DNA of 64,000 nt from Hydrogenivirga caldilitoris (GTDB lineage Bacteria > Aquificota > Aquificia > Aquificales > Aquificaceae): the NCBI RefSeq assembly GCF_003664005.1, contig NZ_RCCJ01000001.1:744001-808000 (forward strand). The letters are read 5' to 3'. Made by a program: the position numbers and the translations under genes. The notes under the pieces are model-generated. The model saw nothing but the letters and a program-made list of their open reading frames with translations, did not search any database and was not told the origin of the DNA. Position 1 is the first letter of the stretch; every line of letters begins with the position of its first letter. Shown piece after piece: positions 9,656 through 58,187 of the stretch.

Positions 9656-11542
9656 ATGCTTAAGAAATACAGACTCCTCTCAGAGTATAAGGGACCCGAA
9701 GATATAAAACGTTTTGGTGAGGAAGAGTTAAAGGAGCTCGCTCAGGAGGTAAGGGACTACATAATTGAGGTTACCTCTCAGAACGGTGGGCATGTGGGTC
9801 CCGGTCTTGGTGTTGTTGAGCTAACCATAGCTCTCTTAAGGGTCTTTGACCCCCCAGAAGACACGATAATCTGGGATATAGGGCACCAGGGTTATCCCTG
9901 GAAGATTCTGACCGACAGGAAGGAAGTGTTCCACACTCTCAGACAGTATGGAGGGATAGCAGGTTTCCTGAGAAGGGAAGAAAGCCCGTACGACGCCTTC
10001 GGGGCAGGGCATAGCTCCACCTCTATATCTGCAGCTCTTGGATTCAGAATAGCCAAAGACTTGAAGGGTGATGAGAGCTTTGTGGTGGCTGTTATAGGTG
10101 ACGGGGCGATGACGGCAGGAATGGCTTTTGAGGCGCTGAACAATGCCGGACACATAAGACCTGACAGGTTCATCGTTATACTCAACGATAATGAGATGTC
10201 TATCTCCCCAAATGTGGGGGCTATATCCACTTACTTGAACAAAATAATAAGCGGACACTTCGTCCAGGAGTCACGTCAGAGGATAAAGGGGCTCTTGAAA
10301 CACCTTGGTGAAACGCCTCTGAGGTTTATGAAACTTACCGAAGAGTTTCTGAAAGGGCTCATATCCCCCGGTGTCCTCTTTGAAGAGCTGGGTTTTAACT
10401 ATATCGGTGTTGTGGACGGCCACAACATCAGTGCCCTTGAAAAGACCCTGCATAACGTAAAGGAGATAAAGGGTCCGGTACTTCTTCACGTGGTTACAAA
10501 GAAGGGAAAGGGTTACCCACATGCAGAGGAAGACCCCGTTAAGTGGCATGGGGTGGCTCCCTACAAGGTTGAGTCTGGTGAGATCATTAAGAAGCCTTCT
10601 CCACCTACCTGGACCTCCATCTTTGGGAAGGCTGTTGTTGAATTGGCAGAGATGGATGAAAGGGTAGTGGTGATAACGCCGGCTATGAGGGAGGGCTCTG
10701 GTCTGGTTGAATTTTCAAAGAAATTCCCGAGCAGATTCTTTGACGTTGGTATAGCGGAGCAACACGCCGCAACCTTTGCGGCTGGATTGGCATGTGAAGG
10801 TATGAAACCCATAGCTGCCTATTATTCCACCTTTCTCCAGAGGGCTTACGACCAGGTTATACACGATATAGCCCTTCAGAGGCTGCCCGTTACCTTTGCT
10901 ATAGATAGGGGAGGCTTGGTAGGAGACGATGGACCAACCCATCACGGCGTCTTTGACCTCTCCTATCTGAGGTGTGTGCCCAACATGGTGGTGGCTGCCC
11001 CCAAGGATGAGCAGGAGCTCAGGAATTTACTCTATACCGCTGTGAACAGCTCCCTTCCCTTTGCCGTAAGGTATCCTCGTGGTTGTGCTTACGGTGTACC
11101 CGTGGAAGACTTTGAAAGCATAGAGATCGGAAGTTGGGAAGAGCTTCTTGAAGGGGAGGAGGTCGTTGTGCTTGCGACAGGGTACCCGGTGTATCAGGCA
11201 CTGAAAGCAGCGGAGAAGCTTTACAAGGAAGGCATACGCATAGGTGTTGTGAATGCGAGGTTTGTAAAGCCTATGGACGAGAGCCTCCTTGAGAAACTGG
11301 CAAGGAAGTATGAACTTTTCATAACGGTTGAGGATAACACCGTTGTGGGAGGCTTCGGAGCGGGTGTTCTTGAGTTCCTGTCCAGAAAAGGTATTCTAAA
11401 GCGTGTGGTCAACCTGGGAGTCCCAGACAAGTTTATAGAACATGGTAATCAGAACCTATTGAGAAAGATTATAGGTATTGACTCTGATGGTATAGAAAGA
11501 GCCGTAAGAGACCTTCTTACCAAGAAAACCCTTGAGTATTAA
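9656..11542 (+). CDS. dxs: 1-deoxy-D-xylulose-5-phosphate synthase
   Basis: 628 residues. Thiamin-diphosphate enzyme that condenses pyruvate and glyceraldehyde 3-phosphate, the first step of the MEP isoprenoid pathway. Visible motifs: the GGHVGPGLGVVELT segment with the active-site His; DIGHQGYPWKILT; AGHSSTSISAALG; the ThDP/Mg motif GDGAMTAGMAFEALNNAG ... NDNEMSIS; then the transketolase pyrimidine domain (GIAEQHAATFAAGLA, DRGGLVGDDGPTHHG) and the C-terminal domain (VEDNTVVGGFGAG). Length is normal for the family. The reading frame is intact. Confidence 0.97.
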   Translation: MLKKYRLLSEYKGPEDIKRFGEEELKELAQEVRDYIIEVTSQNGGHVGPGLGVVELTIALLRVFDPPEDTIIWDIGHQGYPWKILTDRKEVFHTLRQYGGIAGFLRREESPYDAFGAGHSSTSISAALGFRIAKDLKGDESFVVAVIGDGAMTAGMAFEALNNAGHIRPDRFIVILNDNEMSISPNVGAISTYLNKIISGHFVQESRQRIKGLLKHLGETPLRFMKLTEEFLKGLISPGVLFEELGFNYIGVVDGHNISALEKTLHNVKEIKGPVLLHVVTKKGKGYPHAEEDPVKWHGVAPYKVESGEIIKKPSPPTWTSIFGKAVVELAEMDERVVVITPAMREGSGLVEFSKKFPSRFFDVGIAEQHAATFAAGLACEGMKPIAAYYSTFLQRAYDQVIHDIALQRLPVTFAIDRGGLVGDDGPTHHGVFDLSYLRCVPNMVVAAPKDEQELRNLLYTAVNSSLPFAVRYPRGCAYGVPVEDFESIEIGSWEELLEGEEVVVLATGYPVYQALKAAEKLYKEGIRIGVVNARFVKPMDESLLEKLARKYELFITVEDNTVVGGFGAGVLEFLSRKGILKRVVNLGVPDKFIEHGNQNLLRKIIGIDSDGIERAVRDLLTKKTLEY

Positions 11543-52627: not shown

Positions 52628-52894
52628 ATGGTTGCCACTCAGGTAGGCTGGGCACCATGGCTCTTTGCACTCCTTGAAAGAATTGAAGGGCTACCCTTTG
52701 TTGAAAGCCTGGAAATTATGGAGCTGTCTTCGGAGGAAGTCAACACTGAATTTTCTCTGAGGATAAGAATATTGGAGGGAACGGACGTAAGCCTGGTCCT
52801 GCCAACTATAGTAGACTTGATAACTCAGGAAAGTTGGAAAGTTTATGAGAGAAATAATACGCTCCCAACCTTTTTCTGGGAAGTAGTAGGTTAA
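52628..52894 (+). CDS. Hypothetical protein (88 aa) upstream of the ATP-grasp operon
   Basis: 88 residues, unrecognised. A Trp-rich hydrophobic start (VGWAPWLFALLERIEGLPFVESL), a central beta-like stretch (NTEFSLRIRILEGTDVSLVLPTIVDLI) and an aromatic end (TLPTFFWEVVG). No cleavable signal is obvious. AAGGAGG is seven bases before the ATG, supporting a real gene. It is separated from the ATP-grasp gene by 66 bp containing a promoter, so the link to that operon is only by neighbourhood. Confidence 0.6.
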   Translation: MVATQVGWAPWLFALLERIEGLPFVESLEIMELSSEEVNTEFSLRIRILEGTDVSLVLPTIVDLITQESWKVYERNNTLPTFFWEVVG

Positions 52895-52960: not shown

Positions 52961-54448
52961 GTGTTAAAGACTAAGGGAACAATTAAGCAATCAAAACCAC
53001 TGTTTAGGGGTTATTTTAAGCACCTAAGGCAATACAAGGCTTTTGATGAGGTGTTTAACAGAACAGGCAAGCCAAAAAAACATTACCAGAAGGTAGCCAA
53101 CTTCTTCTCCAAAATGTCCAAAGATGAGTTCTTAGAACTCAACAATCACACGAAAATTTCCTTTATGTATCAGGGTGTAACTTTCACGGTTTACTCTGAA
53201 AAGGAAGGTATAGAGAGAATTTTTCCCTTTGACCTTTTCCCACGGATAATAACTCAAAGAGAATGGGAGAAAATAGAAAGGGGACTTGTTCAAAGGATAA
53301 CTGCTCTAAACCTGTTCCTGCACGATATATACCATGATAAGAAGATACTTAAAGATAGGGTTATTCCCTACGACCTCGTTCTGGAGTCTCCCCATTACAA
53401 CAAGGAAATGATAAATCTTGAACCTCCAGGTGGTGTGTACACACACGTATCCGGTATTGACATAATCCGCCACAAAGACGGAGAGTTTTACGTGCTGGAA
53501 GATAATCTACGCTCTCCATCGGGGGTGAGTTATGTCCTGTCAAACCGGTCAACGATGAAAAAAGTCCTGCCCAACATATTTTTCCATTATGAGGTGTCTT
53601 CTGTGAGCGATTATCCTCAGCAACTTCTTGCGATGCTGAAATCAGTCGCACCTGAAGGAGTTGATGAGCCAACCTGCGTTGTTCTGACTCCGGGTATATA
53701 TAACTCAGCCTACTATGAGCACACGTTCTTAGCTCACAATATGGGTGTAGAGCTTGTTGAGGGTAGAGACATGTTCGTTGATAACAACTTCGTGTATATG
53801 AAAACCATCTACGGACCCCAAAAAGTTGATGTGATATACAGAAGGGTTGATGACAGTTTCTTAGACCCTTTGGTCTTTAAACCTGAATCCCTCCTCGGAG
53901 TTCCGGGAATAATGGCCGCTTACAGGGCTGGAAATGTGACTATAGTTAACGCTCCAGGAACTGGAGTTGCTGACGATAAAGCCATATACGCCTATGTGCC
54001 TCAAATGATAAGGTACTACCTTAAAGAGGAGCCGGTGCTTAATAACGTTCCGACGTATATCTGTGACATAGAGGAGGATTTCAATTATGTAATGGACAAT
54101 ATGGAGAAGTTAGTTATCAAGCCTGTTGATGAATCAGGAGGTTACGGGATACTTATAGGTGCTATGGCAACAAAAGAAGAGATTGAAACTTACAAAAACA
54201 AGATAAGAAGAAACAGAAGAAAGTATATAGCCCAGCCGATAATGACGCTTTCCACCCACCCTACGTTTATTGAAGAATCTGGGAAATTTGAACCAAGACA
54301 CATAGATTTAAGGACTTTCCTCCTTTATGGAAAGGATTTTAAATATCCTCTTAAGGGTGGTTTAACTAGAGTTGCCCTAAAGAAAGGCAGTCTTATAGTT
54401 AACTCATCACAGGGTGGGGGCTCTAAAGATACGTGGGTTATGGAATAA
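52961..54448 (+). CDS. Circularly permuted ATP-grasp enzyme (DUF404/DUF407, COG2308)
   Basis: 495 residues, GTG start with AAAGGAG. Family segments: RITALNLFLHDIYHDKKILKDRVIPYDLV, VSGIDIIRHKDGEFYVLEDNLRSPSGVSYVL (with Glu/Asp/Asn metal and nucleotide residues), VVLTPGIYNSAYYEHTFLAHNMGVELVEGRDM and PVDESGGYGILIGAMA (glycine-rich phosphate loop). These proteins are predicted amide-bond ligases acting on peptides or amino acids. The four following genes (alpha-E, transglutaminase-like, two M14) are all on the same strand with gaps or overlaps of a few bases. The natural substrate is not known. Confidence 0.9.
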   Translation: MLKTKGTIKQSKPLFRGYFKHLRQYKAFDEVFNRTGKPKKHYQKVANFFSKMSKDEFLELNNHTKISFMYQGVTFTVYSEKEGIERIFPFDLFPRIITQREWEKIERGLVQRITALNLFLHDIYHDKKILKDRVIPYDLVLESPHYNKEMINLEPPGGVYTHVSGIDIIRHKDGEFYVLEDNLRSPSGVSYVLSNRSTMKKVLPNIFFHYEVSSVSDYPQQLLAMLKSVAPEGVDEPTCVVLTPGIYNSAYYEHTFLAHNMGVELVEGRDMFVDNNFVYMKTIYGPQKVDVIYRRVDDSFLDPLVFKPESLLGVPGIMAAYRAGNVTIVNAPGTGVADDKAIYAYVPQMIRYYLKEEPVLNNVPTYICDIEEDFNYVMDNMEKLVIKPVDESGGYGILIGAMATKEEIETYKNKIRRNRRKYIAQPIMTLSTHPTFIEESGKFEPRHIDLRTFLLYGKDFKYPLKGGLTRVALKKGSLIVNSSQGGGSKDTWVME

Positions 54449-54451
54449 AGC

Positions 54452-55393
54452 ATGCTCTCAAGGATAGCGAACAACCTCTTTTGGCTCGGTAGATATCTGG
54501 AAAGGGTTGAAGACACGACGAGATTTGTAGAGGTTCAATACTACTCGGCTTTAGATGCACCCTTTATACAGAAAAAGGAGCTAACTTTAAACTCAATACT
54601 CTCCATTCTTGGTAACTCAGACTACTACTTCCAGAAATACGAGACTTTATCTGAGGATGATGTCCTGTACACGGCGATATTTGATAGGGATAACCCCACT
54701 TCAGTTTTTTATTCCCTGAGCATGGCGAGAGAGAACGCCAGGACAACAAGAGATATATTGGCTGAGCATCTATGGGAGTCCATAAACCGTTTCTATCACT
54801 ATTTAAAAAACTACAGATTTAACAGGTTTCAGAAAAATCCCTTTGACCTGCTTGATACCGTGATAGACAACTGCTTCATTATCAACGGGATAATAGACAG
54901 GATCATAATGAAGGATATCGGATGGGCTTTTATAAAGCTTGGAATAGACATAGAGAAAGCTGCCCAGCTGTCAAGAATAATCTTGGCAAAGATACAGGAC
55001 ATTGAAAACATGAAAAATCCTACAGAGATAGCGGAACGTTTCCAGTGGAACAAGCTTCTTGAAAGCACCGCTGCTGAAGATATAAAGAGCACACTTGACC
55101 CAAAAGCTACGGACAAGGAAAAAGTTCTTGAAATCCTGATTTTGAATCCCAAATCTCCACGCTCAATTTCCTATAATCTTCAGAGCATTTACAATCTACT
55201 CGTTTTAGTTTCTTTGGATAAAGAGGAGAAGGCGGGAAGCGTGGAGTTTGAGGCAGGCAAACTCGCTTCAAGGTTCAGGTACACAACCGTTGAAGATATC
55301 ATAAACGTGGGAGAAAAGGAGTTTTGCTTAAGAACTCTGAACGATATCTACAGTTTAGCAACCCTGATAGAGAAGAGGTATTTTGTATACTGA
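54452..55393 (+). CDS. Alpha-E domain protein (DUF403)
   Basis: 313 residues, mostly helical. The start MLSRIANNLFWLGRYLERVEDTTRFVEV is the signature of the alpha-E family, where the conserved ARE motif appears here as MARENARTTRDILAEHLWESINRFYHYL. These proteins almost always accompany permuted ATP-grasp genes and are thought to be partners in the same synthesis; activity is not established. It starts 3 bp after the ATP-grasp stop and its own stop shares one base with the next ATG. Confidence 0.9.
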   Translation: MLSRIANNLFWLGRYLERVEDTTRFVEVQYYSALDAPFIQKKELTLNSILSILGNSDYYFQKYETLSEDDVLYTAIFDRDNPTSVFYSLSMARENARTTRDILAEHLWESINRFYHYLKNYRFNRFQKNPFDLLDTVIDNCFIINGIIDRIIMKDIGWAFIKLGIDIEKAAQLSRIILAKIQDIENMKNPTEIAERFQWNKLLESTAAEDIKSTLDPKATDKEKVLEILILNPKSPRSISYNLQSIYNLLVLVSLDKEEKAGSVEFEAGKLASRFRYTTVEDIINVGEKEFCLRTLNDIYSLATLIEKRYFVY

Positions 55394-56241
55394 TGAGGTA
55401 CAAAGTTATATATAACACCGACAACCATTACACGGATGTGGTAAGGGAGGCTATATACGACCTTTTGGTTTTGCCAACAACCGATGAATCTCAAACGCTT
55501 CTGTTCTACAACACAGAGAATTCTATCAAAGAGAAACCTACCCTATATAAGAACACCTTTGGGTTTGACGTTTTCAGGATAAGAACCGCCAAGCCCTTTG
55601 AGACTTTTTCTTTCAGAATGGAAGCTGAGGTCGCAGTGAAGGAGGTAAACCCCTTTGACTTTATCTCGCTTCCGCCTGAAGAGGAAAGAGCCATTTTAAA
55701 CTCTGAAGCCTTCAAGATTGATAACTTCCTGTTTTTGAAAAGAACCAGATACACTCACCTGTCGGATTCTAATAAGAAGAAGATACCAAACCTTGATAAA
55801 TCAAAATCGGTCTTTAACTTCTTGTTAGAACTGAACAGGTATATAAACGAGAGAATAGATTACTGCACCCTATCAACGGACGTTTACACTACTGCCGACC
55901 AAGTCTTTGAGCTTGGGAAAGGAGTTTGTCAGGACTACGCTCACGCTTTTATTTCTGTGGCAAGAGAGAACCAGATACCCTCCAGATACGTATCTGGGTA
56001 TTTAAACCCCGGCGAGGGTCTAATTGGAAGCCTGTTCATGCACGCTTGGGTTGAAGCCCTGATACCGGGAGTGGGCTGGAAGGGTTTTGACCCTACAAAC
56101 AACCTTCTCGTTGATGAAAACTACGTAAAGGTAGCTCACGGCGTTGATTATAATGATTGTGCACCTATTAAAGGGGTCGTAAAAACAAATGGAAAGGTGG
56201 AAACCCAGTATTTAGTGCAGGTTTCCCAGGAGCAGCAATGA
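55393..56241 (+). CDS. Transglutaminase-like (papain-fold) peptidase/amidase
   Basis: 282 residues from the ATG at 55393 (MRYKVIYNTDNHYTDVV), which overlaps the previous stop as TGATG. The longer frame is a read-through of the alpha-E gene. An N-terminal beta domain (1-150) is typical of this subfamily. The catalytic domain has the Cys in ELGKGVCQDYAHAFISVAREN, the His in LFMHAWVEALIPGVGWKGFDPTNN and the following Asp. In such clusters it may act as an isopeptidase or amide-transfer enzyme on the ATP-grasp product (inference). Confidence 0.9.
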   Translation: MRYKVIYNTDNHYTDVVREAIYDLLVLPTTDESQTLLFYNTENSIKEKPTLYKNTFGFDVFRIRTAKPFETFSFRMEAEVAVKEVNPFDFISLPPEEERAILNSEAFKIDNFLFLKRTRYTHLSDSNKKKIPNLDKSKSVFNFLLELNRYINERIDYCTLSTDVYTTADQVFELGKGVCQDYAHAFISVARENQIPSRYVSGYLNPGEGLIGSLFMHAWVEALIPGVGWKGFDPTNNLLVDENYVKVAHGVDYNDCAPIKGVVKTNGKVETQYLVQVSQEQQ

Positions 56242-57176
56242 TAGAAGAGGTATTTTCCCTTGATTTAAGGGTTTCTGAGAAATTCTACATAAGAAGGAAC
56301 AGGTATACTCCCGGAAATCCGGGAAGTGGAAAGAGGATATCAATAGTATCGGGCATACACGGGGATGAGCTTGAAGGTCAAATGGTGTGTTATCTGCTGA
56401 ACAGGTTTTTAAGAGAGAATGAAGATAAGATTCTCGGAACTATAGATATCTATCCCTCTATCAATTCCGTCGGAATAGATTCCATATTGAGGAACGTTCC
56501 TCCTACAGATATTGACCTAAATAGAGTTTTCCCAGGTTCACCAGAAGGAACCTTACCGGAGAGAATCGCCTTTGCTCTTGTTGAAGCTGTGAAGGGTTCG
56601 GACATAGCGATAGACATCCATTCAAGCAACATCTTTCTCTTTGAAATACCCCAAGTTAGGATAAGTGAGGAGAATGCTGAAACCCTCGTTCCCTTGGCTG
56701 AGAAGCTGAACGTGGATTTTATATGGGTTCATGGTGCTGTTACGGTTTTAAAATCCACCTTTGCCCATACAATGAATGAGCTCGGCACTAAAACCCTCGT
56801 CGTGGAGATGGGTGTAGGTATGAGGCTAACTCAAGAGTACTGTTATCAGCTTTTTAGGGGGATTGTAAACTTGCTCACCCAAGAGGGGTTTTTAAACTAT
56901 GAGGTTAACTATGATGTGAGGAAACCAACGATCTCAACGAACGGAGAAGTCCACTTCATAAACGCGGAAGCTCCAGGGATATTTATACAGAATTCAGAGC
57001 ACGGCAGCTGGGTTAATGAAGGAGAGAATATAGGAAGAGTCGTATCCTCTCTAACGGGAGAGGTTCTCCAGGATGTTGTTTCCCCAGCTAAAGGTTTTCT
57101 ATTTACCCTGAGGGAGTACCCAGTGGTATATCCCGGCTCCCTCCTTGCCAGGATTTACGAGGAAAAAAATGGGTAA
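56238..57176 (+). CDS. M14-family zinc amidohydrolase, AstE/AspA-like
   Basis: 312 residues; succinylglutamate desuccinylase/aspartoacylase-type zinc carboxypeptidase. Zinc ligands H41 and E44 in SGIHGDELEG, a third in AIDIHSSN, and the catalytic Glu in LVVEMGVGMRL. The C-terminal beta domain begins near residue 235 (PGIFIQN). All catalytic parts look intact. It overlaps the transglutaminase gene by 4 bp and the paralogue after it by 8 bp. The substrate is not predictable; deacylating or trimming the ligase product is a guess from context. Confidence 0.88.
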   Translation: MIEEVFSLDLRVSEKFYIRRNRYTPGNPGSGKRISIVSGIHGDELEGQMVCYLLNRFLRENEDKILGTIDIYPSINSVGIDSILRNVPPTDIDLNRVFPGSPEGTLPERIAFALVEAVKGSDIAIDIHSSNIFLFEIPQVRISEENAETLVPLAEKLNVDFIWVHGAVTVLKSTFAHTMNELGTKTLVVEMGVGMRLTQEYCYQLFRGIVNLLTQEGFLNYEVNYDVRKPTISTNGEVHFINAEAPGIFIQNSEHGSWVNEGENIGRVVSSLTGEVLQDVVSPAKGFLFTLREYPVVYPGSLLARIYEEKNG

Positions 57177-58101
57177 AGAGCTTCTCTTCAGTTTTCCGTC
57201 CCCGAGCAGGGATGAGCTAAAGGTTTATGGCTACAGATTCAAAGGAGCAGAAGGGAAAGCTTCTGTTGCCATAGTAAGTGGTTTAAGAGGAGATGAACTC
57301 CTCCAGCTTTACGTGGCATCAAAGCTCGTAAGATTCTTGAAGGAAAAGCTTGAACATAACAAGTCTTTCGTAAGGGGAGAAGTGCTTATAATCCCAGCAG
57401 TCAACACTTACAGCTTCAATATTGAAAAGAGATACTGGCCCCTGGACAATACGGACATAAGCAGGATGTTTCCAGGATACGATAGAGGAGAAACTACCCA
57501 GAGGATAGCGGCAATGTTGTTTGAAAAGGTCAAAGGTTTTGATTACGGAATAAAACTTACATCAGGAATAAGGTCCAATGAATACATTCCCCATGTGAAG
57601 GTTTTTGACATGGAAAACAGCGATATAGATAAGTCAAGAGATTTTGGGTTGAGATACATACACAAGATACAGCCTAAACCCTATGACACCGTCACCCTTG
57701 CTTACAACTGGCAAATCTGGAACACAAAAGCCTACTCAATATACGGTGGAAAGGCAAACGACATAAACTTTGCTTACGCTGAGGAGATTAAAAACGCCCT
57801 GGTCAGGTTCTTATCTAAGAATGAAGTAATCTCACACAGGATTCACGAGCTTTACTTTCCTGAAGTTATAGAAGATGAAAGCCTTGTGAGTGTGAAGACA
57901 CCCTATGCGGGTATATTCCATCCTTACAAGGAGTTAGGAGACTATGTGGTGAAAGGGGAAACCCTCTTCCGTGTTGAAGACCCCTTGTCAGGAGAGACAA
58001 GAGTCAAGATAAAGTCTCCCGTTGACGGGATTGTATTTCAAAAACATAACCACCCAATGATATATCAGAACACGGTTGCCTTTAGACTTGAAGTCAAGTG
58101 A
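57169..58101 (+). CDS. Catalytically degenerate M14 (AstE/AspA-like) paralogue
   Basis: 310 residues from the ATG at 57169. It aligns end to end with the preceding protein, including the C-terminal beta domain (AGIFHPYKELGDYVVKGETLFRVEDPLSGE). The zinc motif reads SGLRGDELLQ, with the first histidine now R40 and the Glu kept. IDIHSSN has become IKLTSGI, and the VEMGVG catalytic region is absent. It therefore looks like a pseudoenzyme that pairs with its active sister as regulator or binding subunit. It closes the operon. The initiator tRNA follows in the opposite direction. Confidence 0.82.
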   Translation: MGKELLFSFPSPSRDELKVYGYRFKGAEGKASVAIVSGLRGDELLQLYVASKLVRFLKEKLEHNKSFVRGEVLIIPAVNTYSFNIEKRYWPLDNTDISRMFPGYDRGETTQRIAAMLFEKVKGFDYGIKLTSGIRSNEYIPHVKVFDMENSDIDKSRDFGLRYIHKIQPKPYDTVTLAYNWQIWNTKAYSIYGGKANDINFAYAEEIKNALVRFLSKNEVISHRIHELYFPEVIEDESLVSVKTPYAGIFHPYKELGDYVVKGETLFRVEDPLSGETRVKIKSPVDGIVFQKHNHPMIYQNTVAFRLEVK

Positions 58102-58113
58102 TGGTTATAAAAT

Positions 58114-58187
58114 TTGCGGGGGAGGGATTTGAACCCTCGACCTCCGGGTTATGAGCCCGGCGAGCTACCAGGCTGCTCCACCCCGCG
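58114..58187 (-). tRNA. Initiator tRNA-fMet (anticodon CAU)
   Basis: 74-nt cloverleaf on the minus strand. It has the initiator hallmarks: unpaired first acceptor position (C1 opposite A72), anticodon CAU and three consecutive G-C pairs at the base of the anticodon stem (CCGGG CTCATAA CCCGG). T arm GAGGG-TTCAAAT-CCCTC. The 3' CCA is not encoded (AA then ATT), so a CCA-adding enzyme is needed. Stems are almost entirely G-C, fitting a hyperthermophile. Confidence 0.96.

What the first reader, a model, noticed from the sequence alone, without database searches (positions are those of the whole stretch)
57169..58101. Tandem M14 pair in which the second copy has lost its zinc site
Both proteins align throughout, including the C-terminal beta domain. 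H41 of the first (GIHGDEL) is Arg in the second (GLRGDEL), the third ligand motif DIHSSN is KLTSGI, and the VEMGVG catalytic region is missing. Overlapping frames suggest an obligate active/inactive heteromer.
Basis: seen in the sequence. Interest (0 to 1): 0.62.

Follow-up and report, generated by a model that had tools for sequence, protein, structure and literature searches.

The report
Conserved live/dead bacterial M14 hydrolase pair
Two neighbouring genes encode a working zinc amide-cutting enzyme and a sister protein that has lost its cutting site, and the two have stayed side by side across at least four bacterial phyla, which suggests that the dead copy works as the partner of the live one.

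Summary
The finding is real and reaches well beyond this window. M1 (56238-57176) is an intact zinc M14 hydrolase of the AstE/AspA type (PF24827). M2 (57169-58101, 8-nt overlap) is its full-length paralogue with H41->R, H128->T and the catalytic Glu190->Tyr; the ligand Glu44 is kept. The pair ends an operon of circularly permuted ATP-grasp, Alpha-E and transglutaminase genes, in the place where the Anbu operon carries Anbu. I collected 131 M2 sequences from Aquificota, Campylobacterota, Bacillota and Coriobacteriia. None has the catalytic Glu; 125 have lost both zinc histidines. The other six are all the heliobacterial copies found: they keep H-E-H but have Glu->Met, and branch at the base of M2. 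In surveys, all 68 genomes with M2 have M1 next to it; one M1 was found without M2. M1 and M2 trees mirror each other. M2 is under purifying selection (dN/dS about 0.10) and has its own invariant residues. Eight Lachnospirales genomes keep the pair without any CP ATP-grasp, so the pair is the tighter unit. A conserved enzyme-pseudoenzyme pair is well supported. A physical heteromer is likely but untested, and "obligate" is too strong. I found no bacterial M14 precedent.

The parts
52961..54448 (+). Circularly permuted type-2 ATP-grasp ligase (first gene of the operon)
   Evidence: PF14403 E=2.5e-164, 547 bits
54452..55393 (+). Alpha-E protein
   Evidence: PF04168 E=1.2e-69
55393..56241 (+). 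Transglutaminase-like protein (overlaps the Alpha-E stop as TGATG)
   Evidence: PF01841 E=1.5e-19; ORFs
56238..57176 (+). M1: catalytically intact M14 (AstE/AspA-type) zinc amidohydrolase, 312 aa
   Evidence: PF24827 E=2.5e-21; HEH/E motif kept in 127 of 131 homologues; model pLDDT 92.2, top PDB matches 3cdx and DoeB 6twm
56358..56369 (+). M1 zinc ligands His41 (56358-56360) and Glu44 (56367-56369)
   Evidence: sequence; conserved column
56619..56621 (+). M1 third zinc ligand His128
   Evidence: sequence
56805..56807 (+). M1 catalytic Glu190 (equivalent to the Glu mutated in CphZ E251A, 8eip; equivalence inferred from the shared family fold)
57169..58101 (+). M2: pseudoenzyme paralogue of M1, 310 aa; 8-nt overlap with M1
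   Evidence: PF24827 E=5.1e-10; 27% identity to M1; model pLDDT 95.8, full-length DoeB fold
57286..57288 (+). M2 Arg40 in place of the zinc ligand His41
57559..57561 (+). M2 Thr131 in place of the zinc ligand His128
57742..57744 (+). M2 Tyr192 in place of the catalytic Glu190

Best explanation
M1 and M2 are an enzyme-pseudoenzyme pair made by one old duplication of an M14 AstE/AspA-type amidohydrolase. M1 is the zinc hydrolase. M2 keeps the whole fold and part of the substrate-recognition motif (the R..N/S(R) stretch) but cannot catalyse. M2 first lost the general-base Glu and later, outside the heliobacteria, lost zinc. Most likely the two form a heteromer in which M2 stabilises M1 or helps it hold a peptide-like substrate, as the inactive subunits do in TldD/TldE and in M16 MPP. 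Where the full operon is present, the pair probably supplies the hydrolytic arm of an ATP-grasp/Alpha-E/transglutaminase peptide-ligation system, in the slot filled by Anbu elsewhere. Shown: M2's loss of the catalytic residues, its constraint, its pairing with M1 and its co-descent. Inferred: the physical complex, M1's amide or isopeptide substrate, and its opposition to the ATP-grasp ligase.
For: Adjacency: all 68 genomes with M2 have M1 directly next to it; 67 of 75 pairs overlap or lie within 20 nt. Catalytic state: M1 HEH/E in 127 of 131; Glu190 absent in all M2. Constraint: median dN/dS 0.098 for M2 and 0.073 for M1 over 129 pairwise comparisons; M2-specific near-invariant residues R14, F24, N84, W90, D93, G107-T110, R112, L177, Y179-Q182. 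Co-descent: mirror-image M1 and M2 trees, M1 100/99, M2 89/84. The pair is kept where the CP ATP-grasp is absent (8 Lachnospirales genomes). Precedents: TldD/E is active only when both are present; the MPP alpha subunit is inactive but essential. Operon parallel: the Anbu operon is ATP-grasp, alphaE, transglutaminase, Anbu, and genomes with the pair have at most one PF00227 protein, of about HslV size.
Against: No interaction data and no complex model: only single-chain prediction was available. G070 has M1 with a GCS2 ligase gene and no detected M2, although that MAG is 83% complete. Eight pairs have gaps of 50-119 nt. Three Coriobacteriia M1 copies are themselves degenerate, so in those genomes the pair cannot be a simple hydrolase. 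In the published Anbu system no specific interactions between the operon's proteins were detected.
Confidence: 0.68

Rival explanations
1. M2 is a free-standing binding protein or sensor: it binds the substrate or product of M1 in its old pocket and regulates or delivers it, without a stable M1-M2 complex. Genomic linkage then reflects a shared pathway and balanced expression.
For: M2 keeps the R and N of the substrate motif (R 49/56, N 51/56 representatives) and has its own conserved residues. Some pairs are not overlapping.
Against: Strict adjacency in 68 of 68 genomes, and retention as a pair even where the CP ATP-grasp is gone, argue for a closer tie than a shared pathway.
Confidence: 0.2
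2. M2 is an enzyme with a new chemistry: the zinc site has been replaced by another catalytic arrangement built from M2-specific residues such as D93, E108-T110, R112 and Y179-Q182.
For: Many M2-only positions are at least 85% conserved across 56 representatives below 70% identity.
Against: The substituted ligand positions themselves are not conserved: 32 different combinations occur at the HEH/E positions among 127 M2s, which is not what a new catalytic centre at that site would look like. In heliobacteria only the Glu is changed.
Confidence: 0.08
3. M2 is a decaying duplicate without function.
For: It lacks catalytic residues.
Against: dN/dS about 0.10, an ancient origin shared by four phyla, and M2-specific invariants.
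Confidence: 0.01

Closest known systems
TldD/TldE heterodimeric metalloprotease (PMC5810440)
   Same: Two homologous proteins that work together; only one has the metal site; the dead one is conserved.
   Different: Unrelated fold and family; complex and activity were proven there, not here.
M16B peptidases and mitochondrial MPP alpha/beta (PMC11266112)
   Same: Active and inactive paralogues, in bacteria from a two-gene operon; the inactive subunit lacks the zinc motif.
   Different: Different metallopeptidase family; clamshell active centre; no link to ATP-grasp ligases.
Anbu operon (PMC6376114)
   Same: ATP-grasp, Alpha-E and transglutaminase genes in one operon with a putative hydrolase.
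   Different: Anbu is absent; an M14 active/inactive pair stands in its place; some genomes keep only the M14 pair.
DoeB/EutE (6twl, 6twm) and CphZ (8ein, 8eip)
   Same: Among the closest solved folds of both proteins; amidohydrolase / isopeptide hydrolase of the same family with a catalytic Glu.
   Different: About 20% identity or less; I know of no dead partner for them; DoeB's NCBIfam cut-off is not reached (58 of 402.7 bits).
Eukaryotic M14 pseudoenzymes (AEBP1, CPXM2, CPD-III, Ecm14; PMC11266112)
   Same: M14 fold with lost ligands or lost Glu270.
   Different: Eukaryotic carboxypeptidase homologues; not in an operon with an active twin.

Membership tests
M14 AstE/AspA-type zinc amidohydrolase (PF24827) | Domain match above the gathering score (M1 and M2) | tested here: met
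   76.5 and 39.6 bits against a cut-off of 25
M14 AstE/AspA-type zinc amidohydrolase (PF24827) | H..E...H zinc triad and catalytic Glu in M1 | tested here: met
   Present in window M1 and in 127 of 131 homologues
M14 AstE/AspA-type zinc amidohydrolase (PF24827) | H..E...H zinc triad and catalytic Glu in M2 | tested here: not met
   R-E-T/Y in the window; catalytic Glu absent in all M2s, both His absent in 125 of 131
DoeB/EutE deacetylase (TIGR02994) | Equivalog model cut-off 402.7 bits | tested here: not met
   58.5 and 46.3 bits
Anbu operon | ATP-grasp, Alpha-E and transglutaminase genes together | tested here: met
Anbu operon | Anbu gene present | tested here: not met
   No Anbu in the operon; only one PF00227 hit, open frame of 183 aa (HslV-sized), elsewhere in G000
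Active/inactive metallopeptidase heteromer (as TldD/E, M16B) | Paralogues, one with and one without the catalytic site, conserved together | tested here: met
   68 of 68 genomes; residues
Active/inactive metallopeptidase heteromer (as TldD/E, M16B) | Physical complex; active subunit needs the inactive one | not testable with these tools
   Single-chain structure prediction only; needs co-purification

The most novel reading that the evidence does not exclude
A bacterial M14 enzyme-pseudoenzyme heteromer, in which the dead subunit began as a zinc-binding, base-less substrate trap (still seen in heliobacteria) and later lost zinc. It would act as the hydrolase of an Anbu-less ATP-grasp peptide-ligation system and, in some Lachnospirales, as an independent module.
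Probability: 0.45. Interest if true: 0.7.

Novelty: new variant of a known kind. Interest (0 to 1): 0.56.

Why it matters
Active/inactive metallopeptidase pairs are known for M16 and TldD/E, but the M14 pseudoenzymes reviewed are all eukaryotic. Here is a bacterial M14 pair conserved across at least four phyla, with an apparent intermediate (zinc ligands kept, general base lost) preserved in one lineage, which makes the order of catalytic loss testable. It also supplies a candidate hydrolase for the unexplained ATP-grasp/Alpha-E/transglutaminase operon, whose function is open even in its better-studied Anbu form.

Tried and rejected
A single-protein M2 scan of genome contigs found nothing; the M1-alignment scan did. 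Plasmid tblastn hits looked like generic AstE/AspA or DoeB-type proteins, not this pair: the two leads that were opened were a RimK-linked M14 in Photobacterium (L008) and a lone M14 in Legionella (L009). Single hits of 100-126 bits in Campylobacterota were first thought to be lone M1 genes; three of them were fetched (L182-L184), score about equally with the M1 and M2 profiles, and lie next to a gene of about ATP-grasp size as in L008; the others were judged by score band only. A pseudogene reading of M2 was rejected by dN/dS. Residue-level coevolution between M1 and M2 was not attempted, since about 130 pairs are too few. Promoter and terminator scans gave no more sites than shuffles. The primary paper on these amidoligase operons (Iyer 2009, PMC3268129) is not held, so prior mention of M14 genes there could not be checked.

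Full report
Observation. The two reading frames are as described. M1 runs 56238-57176 and M2 57169-58101, with an 8-nt overlap. They are the last two genes of a tightly packed operon: CP ATP-grasp (52961-54448, PF14403), Alpha-E (54452-55393, PF04168), transglutaminase (55393-56241, PF01841), M1 and M2. M1 and M2 share 27% identity over almost their full length, E=3e-27, and both match PF24827 only. M1 has the family's zinc triad (H41, E44, H128) and Glu190. M2 has R40, E43, T131 and Y192 in those places. One detail of the first report is wrong: the VEMGVG stretch is present in M2 but changed (SIYGGK).

How far it extends. The window genome (1.75 Mb, one contig) belongs to a phylum in which the pair is patchy: of 136 genomes, three have both genes (G000, G081, G083) and one has M1 only (G070), while none of 16 other members of the window's genus has a match. 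A scan with an M1 alignment recovered 80 loci, nearly all in other phyla, and nearly all carry M2 immediately after M1. Surveys with an M2 profile, which separates M2 (about 260-466 bits) from M1 (about 78-199 bits), found M2 in 23 of 298 Campylobacterota, 29 of 295 Lachnospirales, 3 of 299 genomes of the heliobacterial phylum, 5 of 199 genomes of the Coriobacteriia class, and 6 of 9 genomes of the heliobacterial order, 5 of them new. With Aquificota that is 68 genomes, and every one has M1 adjacent. The exceptions are one extra orphan M2 copy in a genome that also has M1-M2 pairs (G144:C132) and the M1-only G070, where M1 follows a GCS2-type ligase gene.

State of the catalytic site. In 131 non-redundant M1 and 127 M2 sequences, M1 is HEH/E in 127. 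M2 has lost both histidines in 125 and lacks Glu190 in all. The two exceptions were heliobacterial; extending to six heliobacterial genomes (131 M2 in all) showed that every M2 there keeps H-E-H and the N-R motif but has Met in place of Glu190. In a careful tree with related M14 proteins as outgroup, M1 is one clade (100/99) and M2 another (89/84). The heliobacterial M2 clade is sister to the remaining M2 proteins, which form a starred clade on a long stem (100/100, length 1.34), and the M1 tree has the same deep order (heliobacteria; Aquificota with Campylobacterota; other Bacillota with Coriobacteriia). The simplest reading is one duplication, loss of the general base first, then loss of zinc. 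The M2 root has moderate support, so this order is likely rather than proven.

M2 is not decaying. Median dN/dS over 129 pairwise comparisons is 0.098 for M2 and 0.073 for M1, with an M2 maximum of 0.23. M2 has its own near-invariant positions (R14, F24, N84, W90, D93, G107, E108, T109, T110, R112, L177, Y179, N180, W181, Q182, A188, S190) that are not conserved in M1 or are different there. It keeps the Arg and Asn of the family's substrate-binding stretch (R 49/56, N 51/56); their role is taken from general knowledge of the family and was not tested here. The M2 model is confident (pLDDT 95.8, pTM 0.93) and matches DoeB over its full length, as does M1 (pLDDT 92.2). CphZ, also among the matches, is a beta-Asp-Arg dipeptide hydrolase whose E251A mutant was solved in complex with a beta- ligand (title cut in the output), in line with Glu190 of M1 being the general base and with an amide or isopeptide substrate.

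Pair against operon. In most genomes the pair ends an ATP-grasp/Alpha-E/(transglutaminase) operon. In eight Lachnospirales genomes no CP ATP-grasp was found anywhere in the assembly, and in one Lachnospirales genome with two pairs (G142) only one copy sits in the operon. So M1 and M2 are tied to each other more firmly than to the ligase. The operon resembles the Anbu operon (ATP-grasp, alphaE, transglutaminase, Anbu; PMC6376114) with the M14 pair in Anbu's slot. The eight genomes tested have at most one PF00227 protein, and in the Aquificota its open frame is HslV-sized (177-183 aa); calling it HslV is by length only.

Mechanism. The best-supported model is an M1 hydrolase with M2 as its non-catalytic partner, probably a heteromer, by analogy with TldD/E (activity only with both) and MPP. 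That they touch is inferred. That the pair removes or trims something made by the ATP-grasp ligase is a further inference from the operon alone, at perhaps 40%. The three degenerate Coriobacteriia M1 copies suggest that at least some descendants no longer hydrolyse, so a structural or binding role of the pair is also possible there.

Novelty. Enzyme-pseudoenzyme metallopeptidase pairs are a known kind; the reviewed M14 pseudoenzymes are eukaryotic. I found no paper on a bacterial M14 pair, but Iyer 2009, the most likely place for a mention of the gene order, is not held. I therefore call it a new variant of a known kind.

Noticed in passing
L118, L119 (Coriobacteriia G1225, G1189): M1 itself is degenerate in these pairs (HGQ/R and YEH/E) while M2 is kept: both copies appear dead, with no CP ATP-grasp found in the genome.
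   Followed up: partly
L121 (G144:C37), M1: The M1 segment that should hold the first zinc motif is replaced by a stretch that looks like a RimO-type N-terminus (VNTCAFIESAKKESI); possible chimera or assembly artefact.
   Followed up: no
L011 (G070), 247-2258: An Aquificota M1 orthologue without detected M2 or CP ATP-grasp, directly after a GCS2 (YbdK-like) ligase gene: a second ligase-hydrolase pairing.
   Followed up: partly
L144 (G144:C132), 10093-11481: Orphan M2 in an open frame of 462 aa without M1 beside it.
   Followed up: no
L182-L184 (Campylobacterota) and L008 (Photobacterium sp. GJ3 plasmid): A different single M14 with intact HEH/E, next to a gene of about 315 aa (RimK-like ATP-grasp in L008; not identified in the others); perhaps another ligase-M14 pairing.
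   Followed up: partly
e.g. L031, L034, L049-L051, L132-L137: In many Campylobacterota a convergent transglutaminase plus large (about 830 aa) second CP ATP-grasp lies beside the pair.
   Followed up: no
window 58114-58187 (-): tRNA-Met on the opposite strand just after M2.
   Followed up: yes
window 52628-52894 (+): 88-aa ORF just upstream of the ATP-grasp gene, not identified.
   Followed up: no
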